DNA from: Burkholderiaceae bacterium
Lineage (GTDB): Bacteria > Pseudomonadota > Gammaproteobacteria > Burkholderiales > Burkholderiaceae_C
Direction: 5' to 3'
Length of the DNA: 33,441 nucleotides
NCBI GenBank assembly: GCA_028685665.1
Contig: JAQUDN010000013.1
Coordinates: 1-33,441, forward strand
Shown here piece after piece: positions 10,918 through 21,970 of the stretch (the first letter of the stretch is position 1; each line of letters begins with the position of its first letter). Both the position numbers and the translations under genes were made by a program. The notes under the pieces are model-generated. The model was not told the origin of the DNA and ran no database searches. It saw only the letters and a program-made list of their open reading frames with translations.

Positions 10918-11376
10918 GTGAGCCAGCCCCATTCCCTTGTTTCCTCTCCCTTGCGCGCGGGCCTGCTGACGGCGGCCGTGCTGGTGGCCTCCCTGCTGGG
11001 CGGCTGTGCCGTCAACGGCGCGGGTTCTGCGCCCGCAGCCCAGGCCCCCGCCAAGGCCGAAGACGCCGTGCGTGACCGCGCCCAGGCCCGCTGGAAACTG
11101 CTGTTGACGGAAGACTTTGACAAAGCCTATGCCTACCTCACACCGGCCTACCGCAACGTGAACACGGCCAGCGCCTACCGTGGCCGCTTTGGCAACGGAG
11201 CCAAGTGGATGGGCGCCGACGTGAAAAGCGTCGAATGCCCCACCGAAGACCGCTGCCTGGCCGTGATCAGTCTGCAATCCCTGGTGGTCGCACGCGGCTT
11301 CAGCGGCCCCATCACCACCACGCCCACCGAAACCTGGCTCAAGGAAGACGGCCAGTGGTACTACTACCAGAACTGA
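10918..11376 (+). CDS. Small lipoprotein of unknown function
   Basis: GTG start 17 nt after gspD; signal peptide with lipobox LLGGC; C-terminal domain AQARWKLLLTEDFDKAYAYLTPAYR... suggests an NTF2/SnoaL-like fold (inference). Confidence 0.85.
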   Translation: MSQPHSLVSSPLRAGLLTAAVLVASLLGGCAVNGAGSAPAAQAPAKAEDAVRDRAQARWKLLLTEDFDKAYAYLTPAYRNVNTASAYRGRFGNGAKWMGADVKSVECPTEDRCLAVISLQSLVVARGFSGPITTTPTETWLKEDGQWYYYQN

Positions 11377-11380
11377 TCTG

Positions 11381-11434
11381 CAAAAAGAGGAGCTGCCAGC
11401 GCTTGCTGGTAGGGCGCTGGAGCCCTTTTTGATG
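11381..11434. repeat. Intergenic repeat family, copy A (hairpin; may also terminate the gsp operon)
   Basis: Inverted repeat CCAGCGC (11396-11402)/GCGCTGG (11414-11420) enclosed by AAAAAG (11382-11387)/CTTTTT (11425-11430); aligns without gaps to copy B at about 14155-14207. Confidence 0.7.
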
Positions 11435-11589
11435 CCTGTGCGTGCATCGCGTTCATGGCCATGGGATATGGCCAGAAATTGCCTATCGGCACTCTGACAC
11501 ACATCGATGGCAGGCTTGGATTTAGCTACGCTGCCGCCTGGTTAGCCCACAACGGCCCTGTGCCGTTGTCGAATGCGCAGGCGCCGTGA
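11431..11589 (+). pseudogene. HipA N-terminal remnant
   Basis: In-frame translation DACACIAFMAMGYGQKLPIGTLTHIDGRLGFSYAAAWLAHNGPVPLSNAQAP*; pattern xIGTL...GRLxFSY...WLA....PLS resembles the HipA N-terminal domain. Below the ORF-track size cutoff. Confidence 0.65.
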
Positions 11590-11595
11590 CGTTAC

Positions 11596-11661
11596 TCAAA
11601 GCTGGCTAAACGCCCCAATCCGCATATTCCCCGCATAGAGATGCAGCTTGTAGTCATCCAT
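11596..11661 (-). pseudogene. Second hipA 5' remnant (MDDYKLHLYAGNMRIGAFSQL*) coupled to the orphan hipB
   Basis: ATG at 11661 overlaps the hipB-like stop codon (11654-11656) by 8 nt as in a coupled operon; the encoded peptide resembles the first residues of HipA-family proteins, then stops. Confidence 0.5.
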
Positions 11662-11965
11662 GCGAGGGTTCTGCGCCGTCTGATGAGGCCGCCAGCGCGA
11701 ACTCCAGCCGTGGAAGCTCGCGCGTCGGCACGACCACCATGCGCAAGCCCAGACCCTCCAGCACGCGCATGAGCTTGTCCACCGTGATGGGTTTTCCGTT
11801 TTCGAGGCGCGAAAGCACGTCCGCAGAAACCTGGCTGAGTGCTGCCGCATCGTCAATCCGCATCCGGCTGCGGGCACGCTGGTTTCGCACCAGTTGGCCC
11901 AGGTCGTGCAACGACCGAACCAACGGAGACGTGGTGTCATTGGGAATGGGGAGGGTTCTGGCCAT
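11654..11965 (-). CDS. HipB-like XRE-family antitoxin/transcriptional regulator
   Basis: HTH IDDAAALSQVSADVLSRLENGKPITVDKLMRVLEGLGLRMVVV, typical of HipB-type antitoxins. Confidence 0.85.
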   Translation of the reverse strand: MARTLPIPNDTTSPLVRSLHDLGQLVRNQRARSRMRIDDAAALSQVSADVLSRLENGKPITVDKLMRVLEGLGLRMVVVPTRELPRLEFALAASSDGAEPSHG

Positions 11966-11984
11966 TTTTATTCCGCCTTTCCGG

Positions 11985-12068
11985 AACTATGCCTGAATTT
12001 TGACTTTCATGGCAATAGTTCTGTTATGACGTAACTATTGCCGGAGACAGGTAGATTCGCCAATAGTT
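11985..12068. promoter_or_regulatory. Multi-half-site operator upstream of the hipB-like gene
   Basis: Half-sites AACTATGCC (11985-11993), GGCAATAGTT (12011-12020), AACTATTGCC (12033-12042), GCCAATAGTT (12059-12068) in alternating orientation; minus-strand -35 TTGCCA (12010-12015) and -10 CATAGT (11986-11991) lie within or across half-sites. Confidence 0.65.
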
Positions 12069-12167
12069 ACGGAAAAACGAAATTAAATCAGCCTTGCACT
12101 CCACCGCAAGAGCCAAAACACGAAACTGCTGACCGCTTGAGTGGACGGTTCACCCTAAAACACCCAC

Positions 12168-12192
12168 AAGCCCGCCATGTGCGGGCTTTTTT
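12168..12192 (+). terminator. Intrinsic terminator (orphan on + strand)
   Basis: AAGCCCGC-CATGT-GCGGGCTT followed by a T tract; perfect 8-bp stem. Confidence 0.8.
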
Positions 12193-12386
12193 ATCCTCAA
12201 TTCGCTATTGAATTAATAGCTATTTCGGCTGGATTTCATTGGATCAGAGCCGTTTTTGACCATGAAAGTTGGCATGAGGCACTGGGTCTTGTCCGCCGAT
12301 TCGGCGCCGCCTCAGCCAACTGGGAAAAGCGCGCCGAGTCTTCTTGCAGACCACTCGTTGGTAGGAAGCCTTGCGTTGCGAGACGG

Positions 12387-12788
12387 TCAGGCGGTTCGGA
12401 CTTCGCTCAACAGTTCAGGGTGGCTATCCAGCAGTTTGAGCAGCTTGACCAATGACAGCGGCGGCTTGGTCTTGCCGTTCTCGTAGCGCGAGAACGCATT
12501 GACGCCACCACCGAAGAGTTCGGCCGCCTGTCGCTGGTCGAGATCGAGTTTTCTGCGCACTTTGGCGATGTACTCGGGATCGACGTAAGCCGCATTCACT
12601 TGGCGCTGGAACAAGCCCATCCATTCGCTGTAGCGGTTGCCATGCTCACGGTTCAGGACGACTTCACCGCACGCAGGGCAAAAGTCGCCCGTTACTGCGG
12701 GGATGGTGGTGACTTCGCCCTTGTAGGTGTAGGGCATGTCGCGCGTGTCATGGATCAGTTCCGCTGCGCCGCAGCAGGGGCATTTCAT
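12387..12788 (-). CDS. mqsA: MqsA antitoxin (Zn-binding N-terminus, HTH C-terminus)
   Basis: MKCPCCGAAELIHDTRDMPYTYKG...FCPACGE...QAAELFGGGVNAFSRYENGKTKPPLSLVKLLKLLDSHPELL; CxxC...CxxC plus MqsA-type HTH. Confidence 0.95.
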   Translation of the reverse strand: MKCPCCGAAELIHDTRDMPYTYKGEVTTIPAVTGDFCPACGEVVLNREHGNRYSEWMGLFQRQVNAAYVDPEYIAKVRRKLDLDQRQAAELFGGGVNAFSRYENGKTKPPLSLVKLLKLLDSHPELLSEVRTA

Positions 12789-12790
12789 GG

Positions 12791-13093
12791 TCATAGCTCC
12801 TTGAAAGAAACGATCAACACGTCATCAATGACGGTTAGTTTGAGATACACCTCATCGCCGCTTCCTGCCTTGGTGCGGTACACATCTTGCCAAATACGAT
12901 GGTCCGCATGGGTCGTCATGCTCTTGTAAAAGTTGGCAGTCGTGAGCGACAAGACTACAGCGCACATTCCAGCCAAGTCGCTGATGCCCACTTCACGCGC
13001 CCCATTGAAGGCACTGGCGGTAGCTCTCACTTGACCTGCCTCGATCAAGGCTTTGACGACTGGCAGCTTGCAGTGAGGGATGCCTTTTTCCAT
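12791..13093 (-). CDS. mqsR: MqsR mRNA interferase toxin
   Basis: MEKGIPHCKLPVVKALIEAGQVRAT...GMCAVVLSLTTANFYKSMTTHADHRIWQDVYR...VYLKLTVIDDVLIVSFKEL, strongly MqsR-like; toxin-first order with mqsA immediately downstream. Confidence 0.95.
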   Translation of the reverse strand: MEKGIPHCKLPVVKALIEAGQVRATASAFNGAREVGISDLAGMCAVVLSLTTANFYKSMTTHADHRIWQDVYRTKAGSGDEVYLKLTVIDDVLIVSFKEL

Positions 13094-13104
13094 GCGCTTA
13101 TTAC

Positions 13105-13134
13105 AACCTAATAGGTGAATTTATCAAATAGGTT
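13105..13134. promoter_or_regulatory. Putative MqsA operator in the mqsRA promoter
   Basis: AACCT-AAT-AGGT (13105-13116) followed by a further half-site AGGTT (13130-13134), just upstream of the mqsR ATG; matches the ACCT-N(2-4)-AGGT MqsA motif. Confidence 0.75.
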
Positions 13135-13215
13135 GGTGACGGAGTTCGGGTCGGTTCGAGCCTGGCCTGCTTTATTTTCCCCATGGCTTCCAGCGACACA
13201 GGCCCACCCCGCCCG

Positions 13216-14127
13216 TCAGTGCGCAGTGGGTGGGGGCCCAAAGAAGCGTGGGGCTTCGCCCCAGAAATGCCAGGCGGCGCTGTCTTGTGCCAGAAGTGTT
13301 TCCAGGTGCTGGAAAACGGCCGGGACCAGCGTGTCCAGGCTGTCGTGCAGGCCCAGGGGGCGCACGTGCAAAAAGCGTTGGCCCGTGTGGGTGTCCAGGC
13401 CCGTCCAGTACACCGTGACCGGAATCTTTTGTTCCACGGCCAGGCGCAGCAGGGCTTTGGGCACCTGGGTTGCCATGCCTGCGATCACCACGGGCACGCT
13501 GGCCGCTACCTGGTCTGAGGGCACATCCACGGCCGCCATGACCTGTTGCCCCTGGCGCAGCGCACGCAGGGCCGGGCGCAGGCTGGCGGACACGTCCAGG
13601 GGGGCGTGGGCCAGGGCCTGCTCCACCTGCCGCGTCCGGGCTTTGACATAGCGGTGCAAGACCGGGCGGCCGGCAAAATGCGCGCCCTCCATCGCCGCCA
13701 CCAGGGCGTGTGCCTGCAGGCCACTGCGGCGCGCATGGCGCAAGCCCCACATGCCGGCACCCCAGTGGAAGGTGCAAAAAATACCGGCTTGGTCGCCCGC
13801 AGGCCAGGTGCCCTGTACCGCCAGGTGGCGGCGCATCCAGGCATCCGAGCGGGTCAGGGCCAAATACAGATCGGCGTGGTCCACCAGGGTCACCAGGCGG
13901 CGCCGGGCCAGCCAGGCGGGCGCTTCGGCCTCGGTGCATTGACCGCGCAAACGGGCCTCGCGCAACGCGGCATGGCAGGGCGCGCGGTACAGCCAGTCCC
14001 AGCGTGCCAGGCGCTTGAACACGGCAAAGCACACGCGCCAGGGCAGCACCGCGGCCAGGCCGGGCAGCAGCACCAGTTCCAGGGCATCGCGGACATGGGT
14101 TTTCCAGTGGCGCAAGAGGTTCAGCAT
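13216..14127 (-). CDS. LpxL/LpxM-like lysophospholipid/lipid A acyltransferase family protein
   Basis: Length and motifs such as GIFCTFHWGAGMWGLR (HxxxxG/N-like region), GQQVMAAVDVPSD, VPKALLRLAVEQKIPVTVYW. Start set to ATG 14127 (MLNLLRHWK). Confidence 0.65.
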   Translation of the reverse strand: MLNLLRHWKTHVRDALELVLLPGLAAVLPWRVCFAVFKRLARWDWLYRAPCHAALREARLRGQCTEAEAPAWLARRRLVTLVDHADLYLALTRSDAWMRRHLAVQGTWPAGDQAGIFCTFHWGAGMWGLRHARRSGLQAHALVAAMEGAHFAGRPVLHRYVKARTRQVEQALAHAPLDVSASLRPALRALRQGQQVMAAVDVPSDQVAASVPVVIAGMATQVPKALLRLAVEQKIPVTVYWTGLDTHTGQRFLHVRPLGLHDSLDTLVPAVFQHLETLLAQDSAAWHFWGEAPRFFGPPPTAH

Positions 14128-14154
14128 CCGGGGTCCAAGGGGATTTGATGACTC

Positions 14155-14207
14155 ATATTTTGATAGCTGGTAGCGCTTTATTCTATTGGGCTGGAGGCCA
14201 ATTTGAG
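14155..14207. repeat. Intergenic repeat family, copy B
   Basis: TATTTTGATAGCTGGTAGCGCTTTATTCTATTGGGCTGGAGGCCAATTTGAGG aligns without gaps with copy A over about 53 nt. Confidence 0.7.
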
Positions 14208-14209
14208 GC

Positions 14210-14521
14210 TTAAACCCCTTGGCCATCTTCCGGCGGTGCAGGGTGCTTGGGGCCCACGGTCAGTTTCAGGCCCAGGATGCCCAGTACCCGGTTCATTGTC
14301 TGCACCGTGCCCTCGCTGCGCTCCTGCTCAATGTCTTGCAGGGTGCGAGTTCCCACCCCCGCAAAGTGCGCCATCTCCGCCGTGGTCAGGCGCATGGTTT
14401 TCTTCAGGTGGCGGATGGCCTGGGGCAGCGTCCATTCGGGGTGGGCCAGCACCTCCTCGATGGCCTGTTTGCGCAGGCGCACCTGCTCGACCACTGACAG
14501 GGTTTTGTAGCGTTTGTCCAC
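14210..14521 (-). CDS. XRE-family HTH protein, probable antitoxin partner of the upstream HipA-like gene
   Basis: LTTAEMAHFAGVGTRTLQDIEQERSEGTVQTMNRVLGILGLKLTV HTH; starts 6 nt after the hipA stop. Confidence 0.8.
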   Translation of the reverse strand: MDKRYKTLSVVEQVRLRKQAIEEVLAHPEWTLPQAIRHLKKTMRLTTAEMAHFAGVGTRTLQDIEQERSEGTVQTMNRVLGILGLKLTVGPKHPAPPEDGQGV

Positions 14522-14527
14522 AGGGGG

Positions 14528-15871
14528 TCACTCCGCGTGCCGCAGGGCGCGCAGCTCCTGGATCCGTGCCCGCAACGGCGCCAGCAAGTAGGCATGCACC
14601 TCCGGGAGCAGCCCCAGCGCTGGCCCTTCGGAAACGATGCGCTCCAGTCCGGGCAGCATCGCCTGCAGGCCTGCGACGATGGCATCCCTTCGCAGCAACG
14701 GGGGGGCGCCCTTGCGGCGCTTGCGGGGTGGGTCCATGCCCTCTGCCAAGGCACAGAGTTGGTCTATCACCCCATTCCAGTCCGGTTGGCCCCCAGACTC
14801 GCCCTCCCAGCGAATGCGTCGGGCAATGCCGTCCGGGTGCAGGTACATCGGCGCAAAGTCGAACAGCGGCGTCAGCGCAATCCTGCCATTCAAGTCCCGT
14901 TGGACCGCGGTGTTGCGCGCATGGTTGTCCTTGTTGCCCAGCGCCAGGTTGGCCACATCGCGGCGCAGGTATTCGATGATTTCGGCCTCCGGGTGCGTGC
15001 AGTGCCGCAGCAGTGCCGCGCACACCTGGTTGTGGCTGGGCACTTTGTCAAACCCTGGCATGCCCGTCAGGCTGGCGATGCTCTCCTGGGCCAGGCGCAC
15101 CGTGCGCCCTTGCTGCACACGCCGGTCAAAACGGGGAATGAACAGCGCCCGCTCGCGCAGCGTCAGCGGTGCGTGAACCCGCAGGCCCAGCAACGATGCC
15201 AGCGCCATATACGGTGCTTCGAGTGCCAGGATCTGCGCCAGCTGGGGGTTCGGTCCCCGACCAAACTTGATGAGGTAGTGCGCCAGGGCCTCGGTATCGG
15301 GGAGCGTGTGGTCCAGGTAGAGCAGGCCGTCCTTGGCGCGGGTCAGCAGGATCTTGGGCCATTCCCCCTGCACCCCGGACGATCCCGCCACAAACAGGCC
15401 ATGCGATGCCAGGTGCTCTGCAAAGTTCTCGCTGCGGGCTGCGACCTCGGCATCGCTGAAGCCCTTGCGAGGCCCGGTTTCCAAAGCCAGGAATTCAGCC
15501 GCCTCCTTCACCCGCAGGTGGCCGATCGGGTTGCCTGCGCCGGACAGCAGTAGGCGCCAATCGGCACTTGCTTCTGCCCCGGCGGGCAGGCCCAACCGCC
15601 GCAGCATCTCCTGGCGCCCAAAGCCCTGCGGCAGCAGGTCGATCAGGAACACGGGCCAATGGGGGCGCGACAGGGTTTCCAGCCCCACGGGCCACTGCGC
15701 CGTCAGGGCATGGGCATCCCTGGCCCCAGGATGGGCAAAAGCCCATTCCACGGCATAGCCTGCATAGGATGGGGTGCGCCAACCTGCGCGGGAATCTCCC
15801 AAAAGCTGGACCGTGGCCGCGTCGTGCCACTGGCCATGCGCATGGAGCTGGATGGTGCACGCAGAAGTCAT
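14528..15871 (-). CDS. HipA-family serine/threonine kinase toxin
   Basis: Gly-rich AGSSGVQGEWPKILL, LFIPRFDR, catalytic GNKDNHARN, metal-binding LFDFAPM. Confidence 0.92.
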   Translation of the reverse strand: MTSACTIQLHAHGQWHDAATVQLLGDSRAGWRTPSYAGYAVEWAFAHPGARDAHALTAQWPVGLETLSRPHWPVFLIDLLPQGFGRQEMLRRLGLPAGAEASADWRLLLSGAGNPIGHLRVKEAAEFLALETGPRKGFSDAEVAARSENFAEHLASHGLFVAGSSGVQGEWPKILLTRAKDGLLYLDHTLPDTEALAHYLIKFGRGPNPQLAQILALEAPYMALASLLGLRVHAPLTLRERALFIPRFDRRVQQGRTVRLAQESIASLTGMPGFDKVPSHNQVCAALLRHCTHPEAEIIEYLRRDVANLALGNKDNHARNTAVQRDLNGRIALTPLFDFAPMYLHPDGIARRIRWEGESGGQPDWNGVIDQLCALAEGMDPPRKRRKGAPPLLRRDAIVAGLQAMLPGLERIVSEGPALGLLPEVHAYLLAPLRARIQELRALRHAE

Positions 15872-15978
15872 TTGCGCAGAATTCTATCGATACTGAATCG
15901 AATCTGGCATCGACTTTGTTGGTTTTTCGTGTAAACGCTCTGGATTAAATGGTGGCGAGGGTGAGCGGTCAAGGTCCA

Positions 15979-16299
15979 TCAGGCAAACACGACATGGGTC
16001 TGCCCTTGTGGCTGGCTGCGAGGTGCTTTGCGCACCACGATCTCCACGTCTCGGCCTAAGCGGTTGAGGCATTCGATCATCTTGGCCTCGCTGATGCCAC
16101 GAAACTGTCCCCGTAGCAATCCTGACAGCTTCGGTTGCGGCACACCCAAAATTTCAGCGGCCTGCTGCTGGGTCAAATGCCTGTGGCGAATGATGTCCCC
16201 GATTTTGCTCGCCAGTCGTGCTTTGACGAACATCGCTTCAGCCTCTGGCATCTCCAGATCGGCATAAACGTTTGCGCTGCTTTCTTCGATGTCGATCAT
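15979..16299 (-). CDS. XRE-family antitoxin (HigA-like)
   Basis: LTQQQAAEILGVPQPKLSGLLRGQFRGISEAKMIECLNRLGRDVEIVV HTH; overlaps the toxin gene by 4 nt. Confidence 0.88.
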   Translation of the reverse strand: MIDIEESSANVYADLEMPEAEAMFVKARLASKIGDIIRHRHLTQQQAAEILGVPQPKLSGLLRGQFRGISEAKMIECLNRLGRDVEIVVRKAPRSQPQGQTHVVFA

Positions 16300-16655
16300 T
16301 TCTGTGCTCCTAAACTGGATTCAATGGCTTTCAGGCGTGACTTGACCAACTCCATGTCAGGTTTGGGTGTGGCAATGCCCTGCGTGGATTTTTTCTGGAA
16401 GCAATGAACGACGTACACCGCCTCGGCATAGCGGACGGTGTAAACCGCACGGTAGGCATCCCCTTGGCAGTCTTCCACGATCTCTAGAACCCCTGCGCCC
16501 CCAAAGCCTTTGAGGGGTTTGGCATCGGGATGTTTTTGTCCCGCTTGGGCCAGATGCAGGGCATAGCCGAAAACATCTTGCACCTCCTCTGGCATGGCCA
16601 TGAGGTCCTTGCGGCTGGAAGCGACCCAGCGCAGTGGTTTGAGAGGCGTTGACAT
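16296..16655 (-). CDS. RelE/HigB-like toxin (phage Gp49-like family)
   Basis: LRWVASSRKDLMAMPEEVQDVFGYALHLAQAGQKHPDAKPLKGFGGAGVLEIVEDCQGDAYRAVYTVRYAEAVYVVHCFQKKS; start set to ATG 16655. Confidence 0.88.
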   Translation of the reverse strand: MSTPLKPLRWVASSRKDLMAMPEEVQDVFGYALHLAQAGQKHPDAKPLKGFGGAGVLEIVEDCQGDAYRAVYTVRYAEAVYVVHCFQKKSTQGIATPKPDMELVKSRLKAIESSLGAQK

Positions 16656-16733
16656 GTGTGAATTATGCCCAAGTGGATATAAAACTGCCCCGATTCGTGG
16701 GGGCGTCAAGCCGCTGGCAGCGCTTTGCCCCAA

Positions 16734-19996: not shown

Positions 19997-21682
19997 TTAG
20001 TTGTAACGGTGAGCCCAGGCACCGCCCAGGTTAGCACCGCGGGTCTTGGCAGCAGCGAAGCCGATGACTGGCAGACCGTTGTTCACACCAGGGCGAACTG
20101 CATTGGCCAGACCAGGCGTGGTGATACGGAACCAGCCGTCAGCGTACGATGTGTTGATCGTTTGTTGGGCCAGCGAAGCACTCAGAACAGCGGATGTTGC
20201 GTTGTTGAAGGACAGCACAGACACTTCACCGCACAGGTTCACAGCAGAGCCAGGAGAAACCACGAAGGTTGTCTTGGTGTTTTCTTCGCGGTCAAAACCA
20301 CGCAGGCTGTTTGTAGACACACAGATACGGTTGCGATCTTCCGACAGGAAGACGTTGCCGTTTGCGCCAGCGCGATAGTTCGCAGCGGAGTTAATCTCTG
20401 GAGTAGTAGCTGTAGCAGCCACGAAGAAATCGGTGGTCATTGCATCGTTCGAAATGATCGAAACGTTGGTGCGAGTGAAGCCAGCGACCAAGTTGGTAGC
20501 ACCTGCGTTGTAGTCCATTGCAACTGCATAACGACGTGTGGGCATGGAGAACACCCAGTCAGTTGCGAAGTTGACAGCACTGTTAGTCAGGAATTCGTTG
20601 GTTACAGCTTGCACGCTCAAAGTGCTTGCCAGCAGTTTGGCTTGCTCAGCTGGTGCAGAAGAACCAGCAGGAATACCAACGCGGTTCAGCGCATAAGGTG
20701 TAGACAGGTCTGGGAAGTCATAGCTTGCAGCACGGACAACACCACCAGCCAACAGCGGATCAGCAGTCAACTGGATTGCTTGTTGCTGAGCCAGATCGGC
20801 ACTAGTTTGGGGGGACCAAACCAAGTTGGCTTGTGCGTTACGGGTAACACCACCAGTAGCGTTAATGGCCAAGGCTTCAATGGCAACTGCTTCACCGGAG
20901 ACGGATGCGCTGTCAGCCAGATTGACGATGGTCCAGTTAGCGAACAAACCGCCGGTAGGCCAGCTATAACCGCGAACCAGAGGGTCGTTTGCCGAACCAG
21001 CCACGTTCGACAGAGCGTTTTCTTGACGATCCATCTGAGCAGACGAGCAAGGAGCAACACCGTTCACGTGCTTGATGGCGTTGTACAAAGAACCCGTAGT
21101 CAGGTTGACAGGAATGTCAGCCATGTTCAGGATTTCGATGTAGCCTTCACGGGTTTCGTTCTTGGCATTAGCGCCTTGACGAACGCGAAGTGTCTTGAAC
21201 TTGCCACCGTCAGCTTTGATGTCTGCAGCGCTTGGCAGTGTGCAGCTCTTGTCATCGGTCACCAGACGCGAAACGCCATCTGCATCGACGGCCACGTTAG
21301 CTGTCCACATGTCACCAGGCGACAGGTAGATGGTGATGTCGAACAAGTCGTCGGAGTTCGAAGCACCGCGATAGCGCAGCTTCACTGCCTTACCGTTGTT
21401 CAGGTCGGTGTTGACGATGTTCAGCAGGGATGCGTTGCTGGATTGGGTCGTGAAGTAAGGCACGAACAGGATGTGACCTGTGCCATCAGTGTTGATTTGC
21501 AGGTCATTTGCTTGGCGAGCAACAGCAGCGGCTGGCAGGCTACCAAATGCAGCGTTGCTGTAAGCCAGACGGCCGCCAACAGCAGTGATGTCAACAGTGT
21601 TTGCCACAACTTGTGCGTTAGCACCGCCAGCGATGCCACCAACCATGGCAGCAATGCTCAATGCAAGAAGATTTTTCTTCAT
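19997..21682 (-). CDS. Secreted/cell-surface protein of unknown function (S-layer-like or major surface protein candidate)
   Basis: Signal peptide MKKNLLALSIAAMVGGIAGGANAQ; long Thr/Ala/Asn-rich protein ending in AHRYN; visibly lower GC and distinct codon usage from neighbours. Start set to ATG 21682. Confidence 0.85.
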   Translation of the reverse strand: MKKNLLALSIAAMVGGIAGGANAQVVANTVDITAVGGRLAYSNAAFGSLPAAAVARQANDLQINTDGTGHILFVPYFTTQSSNASLLNIVNTDLNNGKAVKLRYRGASNSDDLFDITIYLSPGDMWTANVAVDADGVSRLVTDDKSCTLPSAADIKADGGKFKTLRVRQGANAKNETREGYIEILNMADIPVNLTTGSLYNAIKHVNGVAPCSSAQMDRQENALSNVAGSANDPLVRGYSWPTGGLFANWTIVNLADSASVSGEAVAIEALAINATGGVTRNAQANLVWSPQTSADLAQQQAIQLTADPLLAGGVVRAASYDFPDLSTPYALNRVGIPAGSSAPAEQAKLLASTLSVQAVTNEFLTNSAVNFATDWVFSMPTRRYAVAMDYNAGATNLVAGFTRTNVSIISNDAMTTDFFVAATATTPEINSAANYRAGANGNVFLSEDRNRICVSTNSLRGFDREENTKTTFVVSPGSAVNLCGEVSVLSFNNATSAVLSASLAQQTINTSYADGWFRITTPGLANAVRPGVNNGLPVIGFAAAKTRGANLGGAWAHRYN

Positions 21683-21970
21683 GTAGGAACTCCAGTTAAA
21701 AATTGAAAGCGCAACTACCAAGATTGATTACGCTCTTTGATGGTAGCACAGGCCTACGGGCCCACCGTGCCCGCGCCCCCCAATGGTAAAAGAGTGTTTT
21801 GAAAAAACAACAATGACCGTTGGGCGACGCAACAGGCTCATACAAATAAGCCAGTTAAAGCGGCGGTTGGCTCGGGTGGAGGGCAGTTTAGCCCAAGGCC
21901 CCAAGCTGGTAAACGGATACCCGGGCTCAAGGGGGGTTGTGGGTGAAGACTGTGGTTTTTTCACACGTCT

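What the first reader, a model, noticed from the sequence alone, without database searches (positions are those of the whole stretch)
11431..11661. Two sub-ORF-size hipA remnants on opposite strands, abutting beside an orphan hipB
Seen directly: the + strand at 11431-11589 reads ...IAFMAMGYGQKLPIGTLTHIDGRLGFSYAAAWLAHNGPVPLSNAQAP*, and the - strand at 11661-11596 reads MDDYKLHLYAGNMRIGAFSQL*, starting inside the hipB-like stop codon. Both resemble the HipA N-terminal domain (xIG-x-L/F pattern; FSY, WLA, PLS in the first). They converge with only 6 nt between them. Because both include the same xIGxx segment, they are better explained as remnants of two different hipA genes than as one simple inversion. 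The hipB-like gene would therefore be an antitoxin left without its toxin, or a regulator kept after toxin loss.
Basis: partly seen in the sequence, partly recalled or inferred. Interest (0 to 1): 0.72.

Follow-up and report, generated by a model that had tools for sequence, protein, structure and literature searches.

The report
Orphan hipB beside two hipA scars
A bacterium has kept the antidote gene of a toxin-antidote pair, with its control sites intact, while the toxin gene beside it and a second toxin gene of another branch facing it have been deleted down to stubs; this is a clear example of a known kind of genetic decay rather than a new system.

Summary
An intact hipB-like gene (11965-11654, -) is followed, at the 8-nt overlap where its relatives start hipA, by only the first ~18 codons of hipA (11661-~11608, -). 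Facing it on the + strand is a remnant of a different hipA branch, clade B. It begins at ~11482, carries codons ~13-42, a ~157-nt frameshifting deletion, then codons ~95-105, and ends at ~11604 against the first remnant. Clade-B hipA genes elsewhere have their own HTH antitoxin gene (17 of 17), absent here, so the two-gene reading is right.

HipB still looks able to regulate itself: its frame is intact, its tree branch is not lengthened, and three operator-like 24-mers stand 48 bp apart before its start, as in relatives. Genome-wide that pattern occurs only there, plus one weak site. No hipA of either clade was found in the 88%-complete assembly, so HipB is a true orphan there.

Most likely this is a toxin-loss scar with an autorepressing orphan antitoxin. 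Immunity to incoming HipA is possible but unproven. Orphan antitoxins, HipA-linked ones included, are already described; this is a finely resolved new member of a known kind.

The parts
11654..11965 (-). hipB-like antitoxin gene (Xre/HTH_31, 103 aa), intact, without a toxin gene
   Evidence: Pfam HTH_31 1.2e-7; TIGR03070 couple_hipB 1.1e-9, below its curated cut-off; 53-67% identity to hipB genes followed by hipA
11608..11661 (-). clade-A hipA remnant: start codon and first ~18 codons, overlapping hipB by 8 nt
   Evidence: score 59 to L036 HipA start against a best control of 40 of 2647; same hipB/hipA offset as L045 and L047
11482..11571 (+). clade-B hipA remnant, segment 1 (codons ~13-42)
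   Evidence: nhmmer E 6.6e-10; hmmsearch E 3.2e-8; tblastn 56% over 32 aa to L075
11570..11604 (+). clade-B hipA remnant, segment 2 (codons ~95-105, ECAGAVTLL), joined to segment 1 by a ~157-nt frameshifting deletion with 2 nt of shared sequence at the join
   Evidence: nhmmer E 2e-5 for 11570-11617, collinear with segment 1
11604..11608 (.). junction between the two convergent hipA remnants (position +/- a few nt)
   Evidence: ends of the two similarities
11967..11990 (-). operator-like site O1, overlaps the -10-like hexamer
   Evidence: ATAGTTCCGGAAAGGCGGAATAAA, pattern with 3 mismatches
12015..12038 (-). operator-like site O2, 48 bp from O1
   Evidence: ATAGTTACGTCATAACAGAACTAT, 1 mismatch
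12063..12086 (-). operator-like site O3, 48 bp from O2
   Evidence: TTAATTTCGTTTTTCCGTAACTAT, 2 mismatches
11986..12015 (-). promoter-like TTGCCA-18-CATAGT for hipB, between O2 and O1
   Evidence: consensus scan only; 1 found, 0.5 expected
11384..11426 (+). terminator-like hairpin after the lipoprotein gene, part of a widespread intergenic repeat; left border of the scar
   Evidence: fold z -3.2; terminator scan; similar copies in many related genomes

Best explanation
This is the scar of two lost hipBA toxin-antitoxin modules that once faced each other. Deletions removed most of the clade-A hipA beside hipB, most of a convergent clade-B hipA, and the clade-B antitoxin gene, leaving ~180 bp of stubs. 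The clade-A HipB survives intact as an orphan. Inferred mechanism: HipB dimers bind three 24-bp palindromes spaced 48 bp apart that cover its own promoter (the -10-like hexamer lies in O1, the -35-like hexamer at the edge of O2) and repress it, so the cell makes a low, self-limited amount of an antitoxin with no partner. Any effect on the cell would come from neutralising a related HipA brought in by a mobile element. Shown here by sequence: two hipA origins, truncations, intact hipB, operator-like array, no other such sites, no resident cognate hipA found. Inferred: dimerisation, DNA binding, repression, expression, neutralisation.
For: Nearly all hipB relatives retrieved are followed by a hipA; the window is not. 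The - stub starts at the relatives' offset and matches their HipA start. The + stub is clade-B hipA in two collinear segments; the second was found with a profile whose members were retrieved using only the first, so it is independent confirmation. Clade-B hipA is preceded by its own HTH gene in 17 of 17 loci. Operator-like 24-mers at 48-bp spacing occur before hipB in the window and in most close relatives; genome-wide at up to 3 mismatches there are only these three plus one weak site, against two for a reversed-pattern control. The HipB branch is no longer than its sisters' (0.42 against 0.50 and 0.55). The only HipA_C genes in the assembly are a different HipA at 14528-15871 and one on contig C20. 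The + peptide and the HipB each have no second match in the assembly.
Against: The assembly is 88% complete in 285 contigs, so a cognate hipA elsewhere cannot be excluded, and the join itself rests on one assembly. No close relative (same genus) was held, so the intact ancestor of this very site and the order of deletions were not seen. No binding or expression data exist. The operator pattern was partly chosen after looking at the window, though it was set by the relatives' sites as well.
Confidence: 0.85

Rival explanations
1. Anti-addiction: the orphan HipB is kept by selection because it neutralises clade-A HipA toxins arriving on plasmids or other mobile elements.
For: hipB and all three operator-like sites are intact while hipA is eroded. 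HipB relatives at 41-59% identity occur on large plasmids of Cupriavidus, Burkholderia and Comamonas. In L036, L043 and L048 hipA appears frameshifted while hipB is intact. Orphan antitoxins have been proposed as anti-addiction modules (PMC7192599) and an orphan plasmid hipB has been suggested to inhibit competing elements or host toxin-antitoxin systems (PMC11541004).
Against: Intact hipB is also what recent toxin loss alone would leave, because the toxin must be lost before the antitoxin. No close relative was available to test for purifying selection after the loss. The frameshifts are in draft or MAG sequences.
Confidence: 0.3
2. HipB was kept as a transcription regulator of other genes.
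For: E. coli HipB is reported to regulate several promoters (Lin et al. 2013, cited in PMC7192599). The HTH gene is intact.
Against: Genome-wide the operator pattern occurs only at its own promoter, plus one weak GC-rich site at the level of the control pattern.
Confidence: 0.1
3. One hipA gene partly inverted: the + piece is the inverted continuation of the - piece.
For: The two pieces abut and are convergent.
Against: Both carry the same N-terminal xIGxx region, and the + piece belongs to another subfamily (profile B E 3.2e-8, profile A E 0.33) with a different partner HTH gene.
Confidence: 0.03
4. The short frames are functional small proteins, for example a HipS-like stand-alone N-terminal domain.
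For: HipS and HipT of HipBST correspond to the two parts of a split HipA (PMC6581861, PMC9325769, abstracts).
Against: The convincing hits of the + peptide lie in long HipA-type frames. The remnant lacks the first ~12 codons, is frameshifted and has no HipT beside it.
Confidence: 0.03
5. Assembly artefact: the join of the two hipA pieces is a chimera of the metagenome assembly.
For: Draft assembly in 285 contigs.
Against: The pieces are only 35-90 bp, shorter than chimeric joins would usually leave (inference). The internal join shares only 2 nt, as illegitimate recombination would. The inexact intergenic repeat at 11384-11426 lies outside both joins.
Confidence: 0.07

Closest known systems
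hipBA type II toxin-antitoxin modules (HipA kinase with HipB, hipBA gene order; PMC8262856)
   Same: HTH antitoxin gene followed, with a short overlap, by the start of a hipA; operator-like array before hipB
   Different: the toxin gene is reduced to ~18 codons, so there is no kinase and no working module
Orphan antitoxins, including those of HipA-type toxins, in Klebsiella (PMC7192599)
   Same: intact antitoxin gene at a site where the toxin has been lost; the paper reports orphans of HipA-linked antitoxin groups and true orphans in 8% of cases
   Different: here both stubs can be read, a second convergent hipA stub from another clade is fused to the first, and the operator-like array is shown to be kept
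Orphan hipB in plasmid leading regions (PMC11541004)
   Same: a hipB without hipA beside another toxin-antitoxin pair
   Different: not shown to be on a plasmid here; it sits next to general secretion genes and three other toxin-antitoxin pairs
HipBST (HipS as stand-alone HipA N-terminal domain)
   Same: a short frame resembling the HipA N-terminus
   Different: no HipT, frameshifted, lacks its start

Membership tests
hipBA module (functional) | HTH antitoxin of the HipB type | tested here: met
   HTH_31 above cut-off; closest relatives are hipB genes paired with hipA. couple_hipB scored 38 bits, below its 71.65 cut-off
hipBA module (functional) | adjacent HipA kinase with HipA_C domain | tested here: not met
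   only 18 codons remain; no HipA_C at 11.4-12 kb
hipBA module (functional) | operators before hipB for autoregulation | tested here: met
   three 24-mers at 48-bp spacing, as in relatives; binding itself not tested
Orphan antitoxin | intact antitoxin coding sequence | tested here: met
   103-aa frame, no stop, start and length as in relatives
Orphan antitoxin | no toxin gene in the toxin position | tested here: met
   longest frame starting near the hipB stop is 25 aa, against 444-466 aa in intact close relatives
Orphan antitoxin | no cognate toxin elsewhere in the genome | tested here: inconclusive
   none found in an 88% complete assembly
HipA pseudogene (clade B) | collinear similarity to hipA with disruption | tested here: met
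   two collinear segments with a ~157-nt deletion and frameshift
Anti-addiction antitoxin | neutralises a toxin from a mobile element | not testable with these tools
   needs co-expression; plasmid-borne hipB relatives exist
HipS / HipBST | stand-alone HipA N-domain gene upstream of hipT | tested here: not met
   frameshifted, 5' truncated, no hipT beside it

The most novel reading that the evidence does not exclude
A HipB lineage in which the toxin is repeatedly lost while the antitoxin and its 48-bp-spaced operator array are kept by selection, turning hipB into a stand-alone, self-regulated immunity gene against incoming HipA kinases (window deleted; L036, L043 and L048 hipA apparently frameshifted).
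Probability: 0.2. Interest if true: 0.5.

Novelty: new member of a known kind. Interest (0 to 1): 0.3.

Why it matters
It is a well-resolved snapshot of how toxin-antitoxin modules die: the toxin goes first, and the antitoxin with its operators outlasts it. Because the operator-like array is intact and apparently unique in the genome, it offers a simple test of whether an orphan antitoxin is still active and whether it protects the cell against a related incoming toxin. The 48-bp operator spacing is a specific, checkable feature of this HipB clade.

Tried and rejected
DNA search of the region in 60 relatives matched mainly mqsRA and the repeat, not the hip scar. PDB search with the + peptide gave only chance matches. 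The clade-A profile gave no significant hit to the 21-aa - stub (E 9.5), because that end of HipA is variable; a start-anchored comparison with controls was used instead. The + peptide also had weak hits to HNH_3 and DUF6000 and a DUF6000 plasmid hit; rejected as chance because the clade-B HipA hits are stronger, more numerous and collinear at DNA level. A simple inversion was rejected (subfamilies differ). A second search of 399 order-level genomes added only two HipB relatives. Selection on hipB after the loss could not be measured without a close relative. PADLOC gave only a weak HTH match.

Full report
WHAT IS THERE. The window is G000:C140:1-33441, in an 88%-complete, 285-contig draft genome. 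Record titles of the related loci point to Burkholderiales, probably Comamonadaceae; the genome itself is not named. Between a lipoprotein gene (10918-11376, +) and an mqsRA pair (12387-13093, -) lies a hipB-like gene (11965-11654, -, 103 aa; HTH_31 1.2e-7) followed by the two short frames of the finding.

THE MINUS REMNANT. hipB relatives were collected from GTDB contigs (9 loci) and from 400 genomes of the same family (38 with a match including this one). Those examined are followed by a hipA whose start overlaps or nearly abuts the hipB stop, and the intact ones are about 444-471 aa. In the window the longest frame starting near the hipB stop is 25 aa. The ATG at 11661 overlaps hipB by 8 nt, the offset seen in L045 and L047. 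MDDYKLHLYAGNMRIGAF scores 59 against the HipA starts of relatives (best L036, MTDYTLHLYAGESLVGAL), while 2647 control starts of the window reach at most 40. L036 also carries the nearest HipB in the tree. This is the start of the cognate hipA, cut after about 18 codons.

THE PLUS REMNANT. The peptide 11455-11586 finds, in 400 genomes of the family, HipA frames as its best hits (L075 56% over 32 aa, E 5.6e-6 for one genome). They form one subfamily (clade B: MxKQLxVWLxxxxVGTLxxxDGRLSFSYAPxWL...PLSxSLPL). A protein profile of clade B picks this frame from 715 stop-to-stop pieces with E 3.2e-8, the next being 0.53; the clade-A profile gives only 0.33. A DNA profile of clade B finds two collinear segments: 11482-11571 (model 67-156, E 6.6e-10) and 11570-11617 (model 312-359, E 2e-5), overlapping by two bases. 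The remnant therefore carries codons ~13-42, loses ~157 nt with a frameshift, and resumes at ECAGAVTLL until about 11604. The relatives behind the profile were retrieved with the first segment only, so the second segment is an independent confirmation. The terminal SQL* of the minus frame is the other strand of this tail, so the two remnants abut within a few bases. Clade-B hipA is preceded by its own small HTH gene in 17 of 17 loci; here both that gene and the first ~12 codons of hipA are missing, and a terminator-like hairpin of a widespread intergenic repeat (11384-11426) comes shortly before. At least three breaks are needed: the 5' loss of B, the internal deletion of B, and the B/A join that removed both 3' parts. 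Their order is unknown.

WHAT HIPB CAN STILL DO. Upstream of hipB in the relatives are palindromes close to ATAGTTnCGn6CGnAACTAT, spaced 48 (or 48 and 49) bp. The window has three such sites at 11967, 12015 and 12063, exactly 48 bp apart. Searching the whole genome with up to 3 mismatches returns only these three and one GC-rich site on another contig, against two for a reversed control pattern. A promoter-like TTGCCA-18-CATAGT lies between O2 and O1, its -10 overlapping O1 (about 0.5 expected by chance, so weak alone). The HipB terminal branch (0.42) is not longer than those of L036 (0.55) and L035 (0.50). Self-repression is therefore the best-supported activity. A wider regulon is not supported. 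The assembly holds two other HipA_C genes, at 14528-15871 in the window and on contig C20, and no second copy of this HipB or of the + peptide.

INTERPRETATION. Toxin loss must precede antitoxin loss, so an intact hipB beside a gutted hipA is an expected stage of decay (general knowledge of toxin-antitoxin modules). It may also be kept as immunity against incoming HipA: hipB relatives at 41-59% identity sit on large Cupriavidus, Burkholderia and Comamonas plasmids, and in L036, L043 and L048 hipA seems frameshifted beside an intact hipB. Those three are draft or MAG sequences, so this is a lead only.

KNOWN OR NEW. Orphan antitoxins are abundant in Klebsiella, include antitoxins of HipA-type toxins, are truly without a toxin frame in 8% of cases, and are discussed as anti-addiction modules or regulators (PMC7192599). 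An orphan hipB is noted on a Serratia plasmid (PMC11541004). The hipBA family and its gene orders are catalogued (PMC8262856). A search for hipA, pseudogene, hipB and remnant together listed four papers, none of which looked, by title and abstract, to describe such a fused double scar; that search is narrow and the papers were not read. The finding is real and finely resolved, a new member of a known kind, with modest interest.

Noticed in passing
window 11654-16733: Cluster of toxin-antitoxin genes in ~5 kb, all on the - strand: orphan hipB, mqsRA (12387-13093), a HipA-like kinase with an HTH gene (14210-15871), and a HigB-like Gp49 toxin with an HTH_37 antitoxin (15979-16733); an acyltransferase-like gene (13216-14226, function judged by eye) sits among them.
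   Followed up: partly
window 14210-15871: HipA-like kinase gene (HipA_C 1.5e-27, weak match to YjjJ) transcribed before its HTH gene, i.e. toxin first, the reverse of hipBA and reminiscent of the hipEB order.
   Followed up: no
window 10918-11376 and 19997-21721: In several related genomes gspD and the lipoprotein gene are followed directly by an exported protein whose relative in the window lies ~8.6 kb away on the opposite strand, so this region has been rearranged around the toxin-antitoxin cluster.
   Followed up: partly
window 11378-11434: Copy of a short hairpin-forming intergenic repeat with many 77-90% identical copies in related genomes (several per genome); here it lies where the terminator of the lipoprotein gene would be.
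   Followed up: partly
L036:6284-7641, L043:6312-6822, L048:388-1766: hipA of three hipB relatives is split over two frames while hipB is intact; intact copies exist in other relatives. Could be real decay or draft-sequence error.
   Followed up: partly
L107:1432-1833: Distant hipB relative (44-45%) with no hipA frame after it; a convergent gene that looks by eye like a tyrosine recombinase follows. Possibly another orphan.
   Followed up: no
hipB upstream regions of L035, L036, L039, L045, L047-L052: Operator-like palindromes of this HipB clade keep a 48-bp (sometimes 49-bp) spacing, about 4.6 helical turns, across genera.
   Followed up: partly
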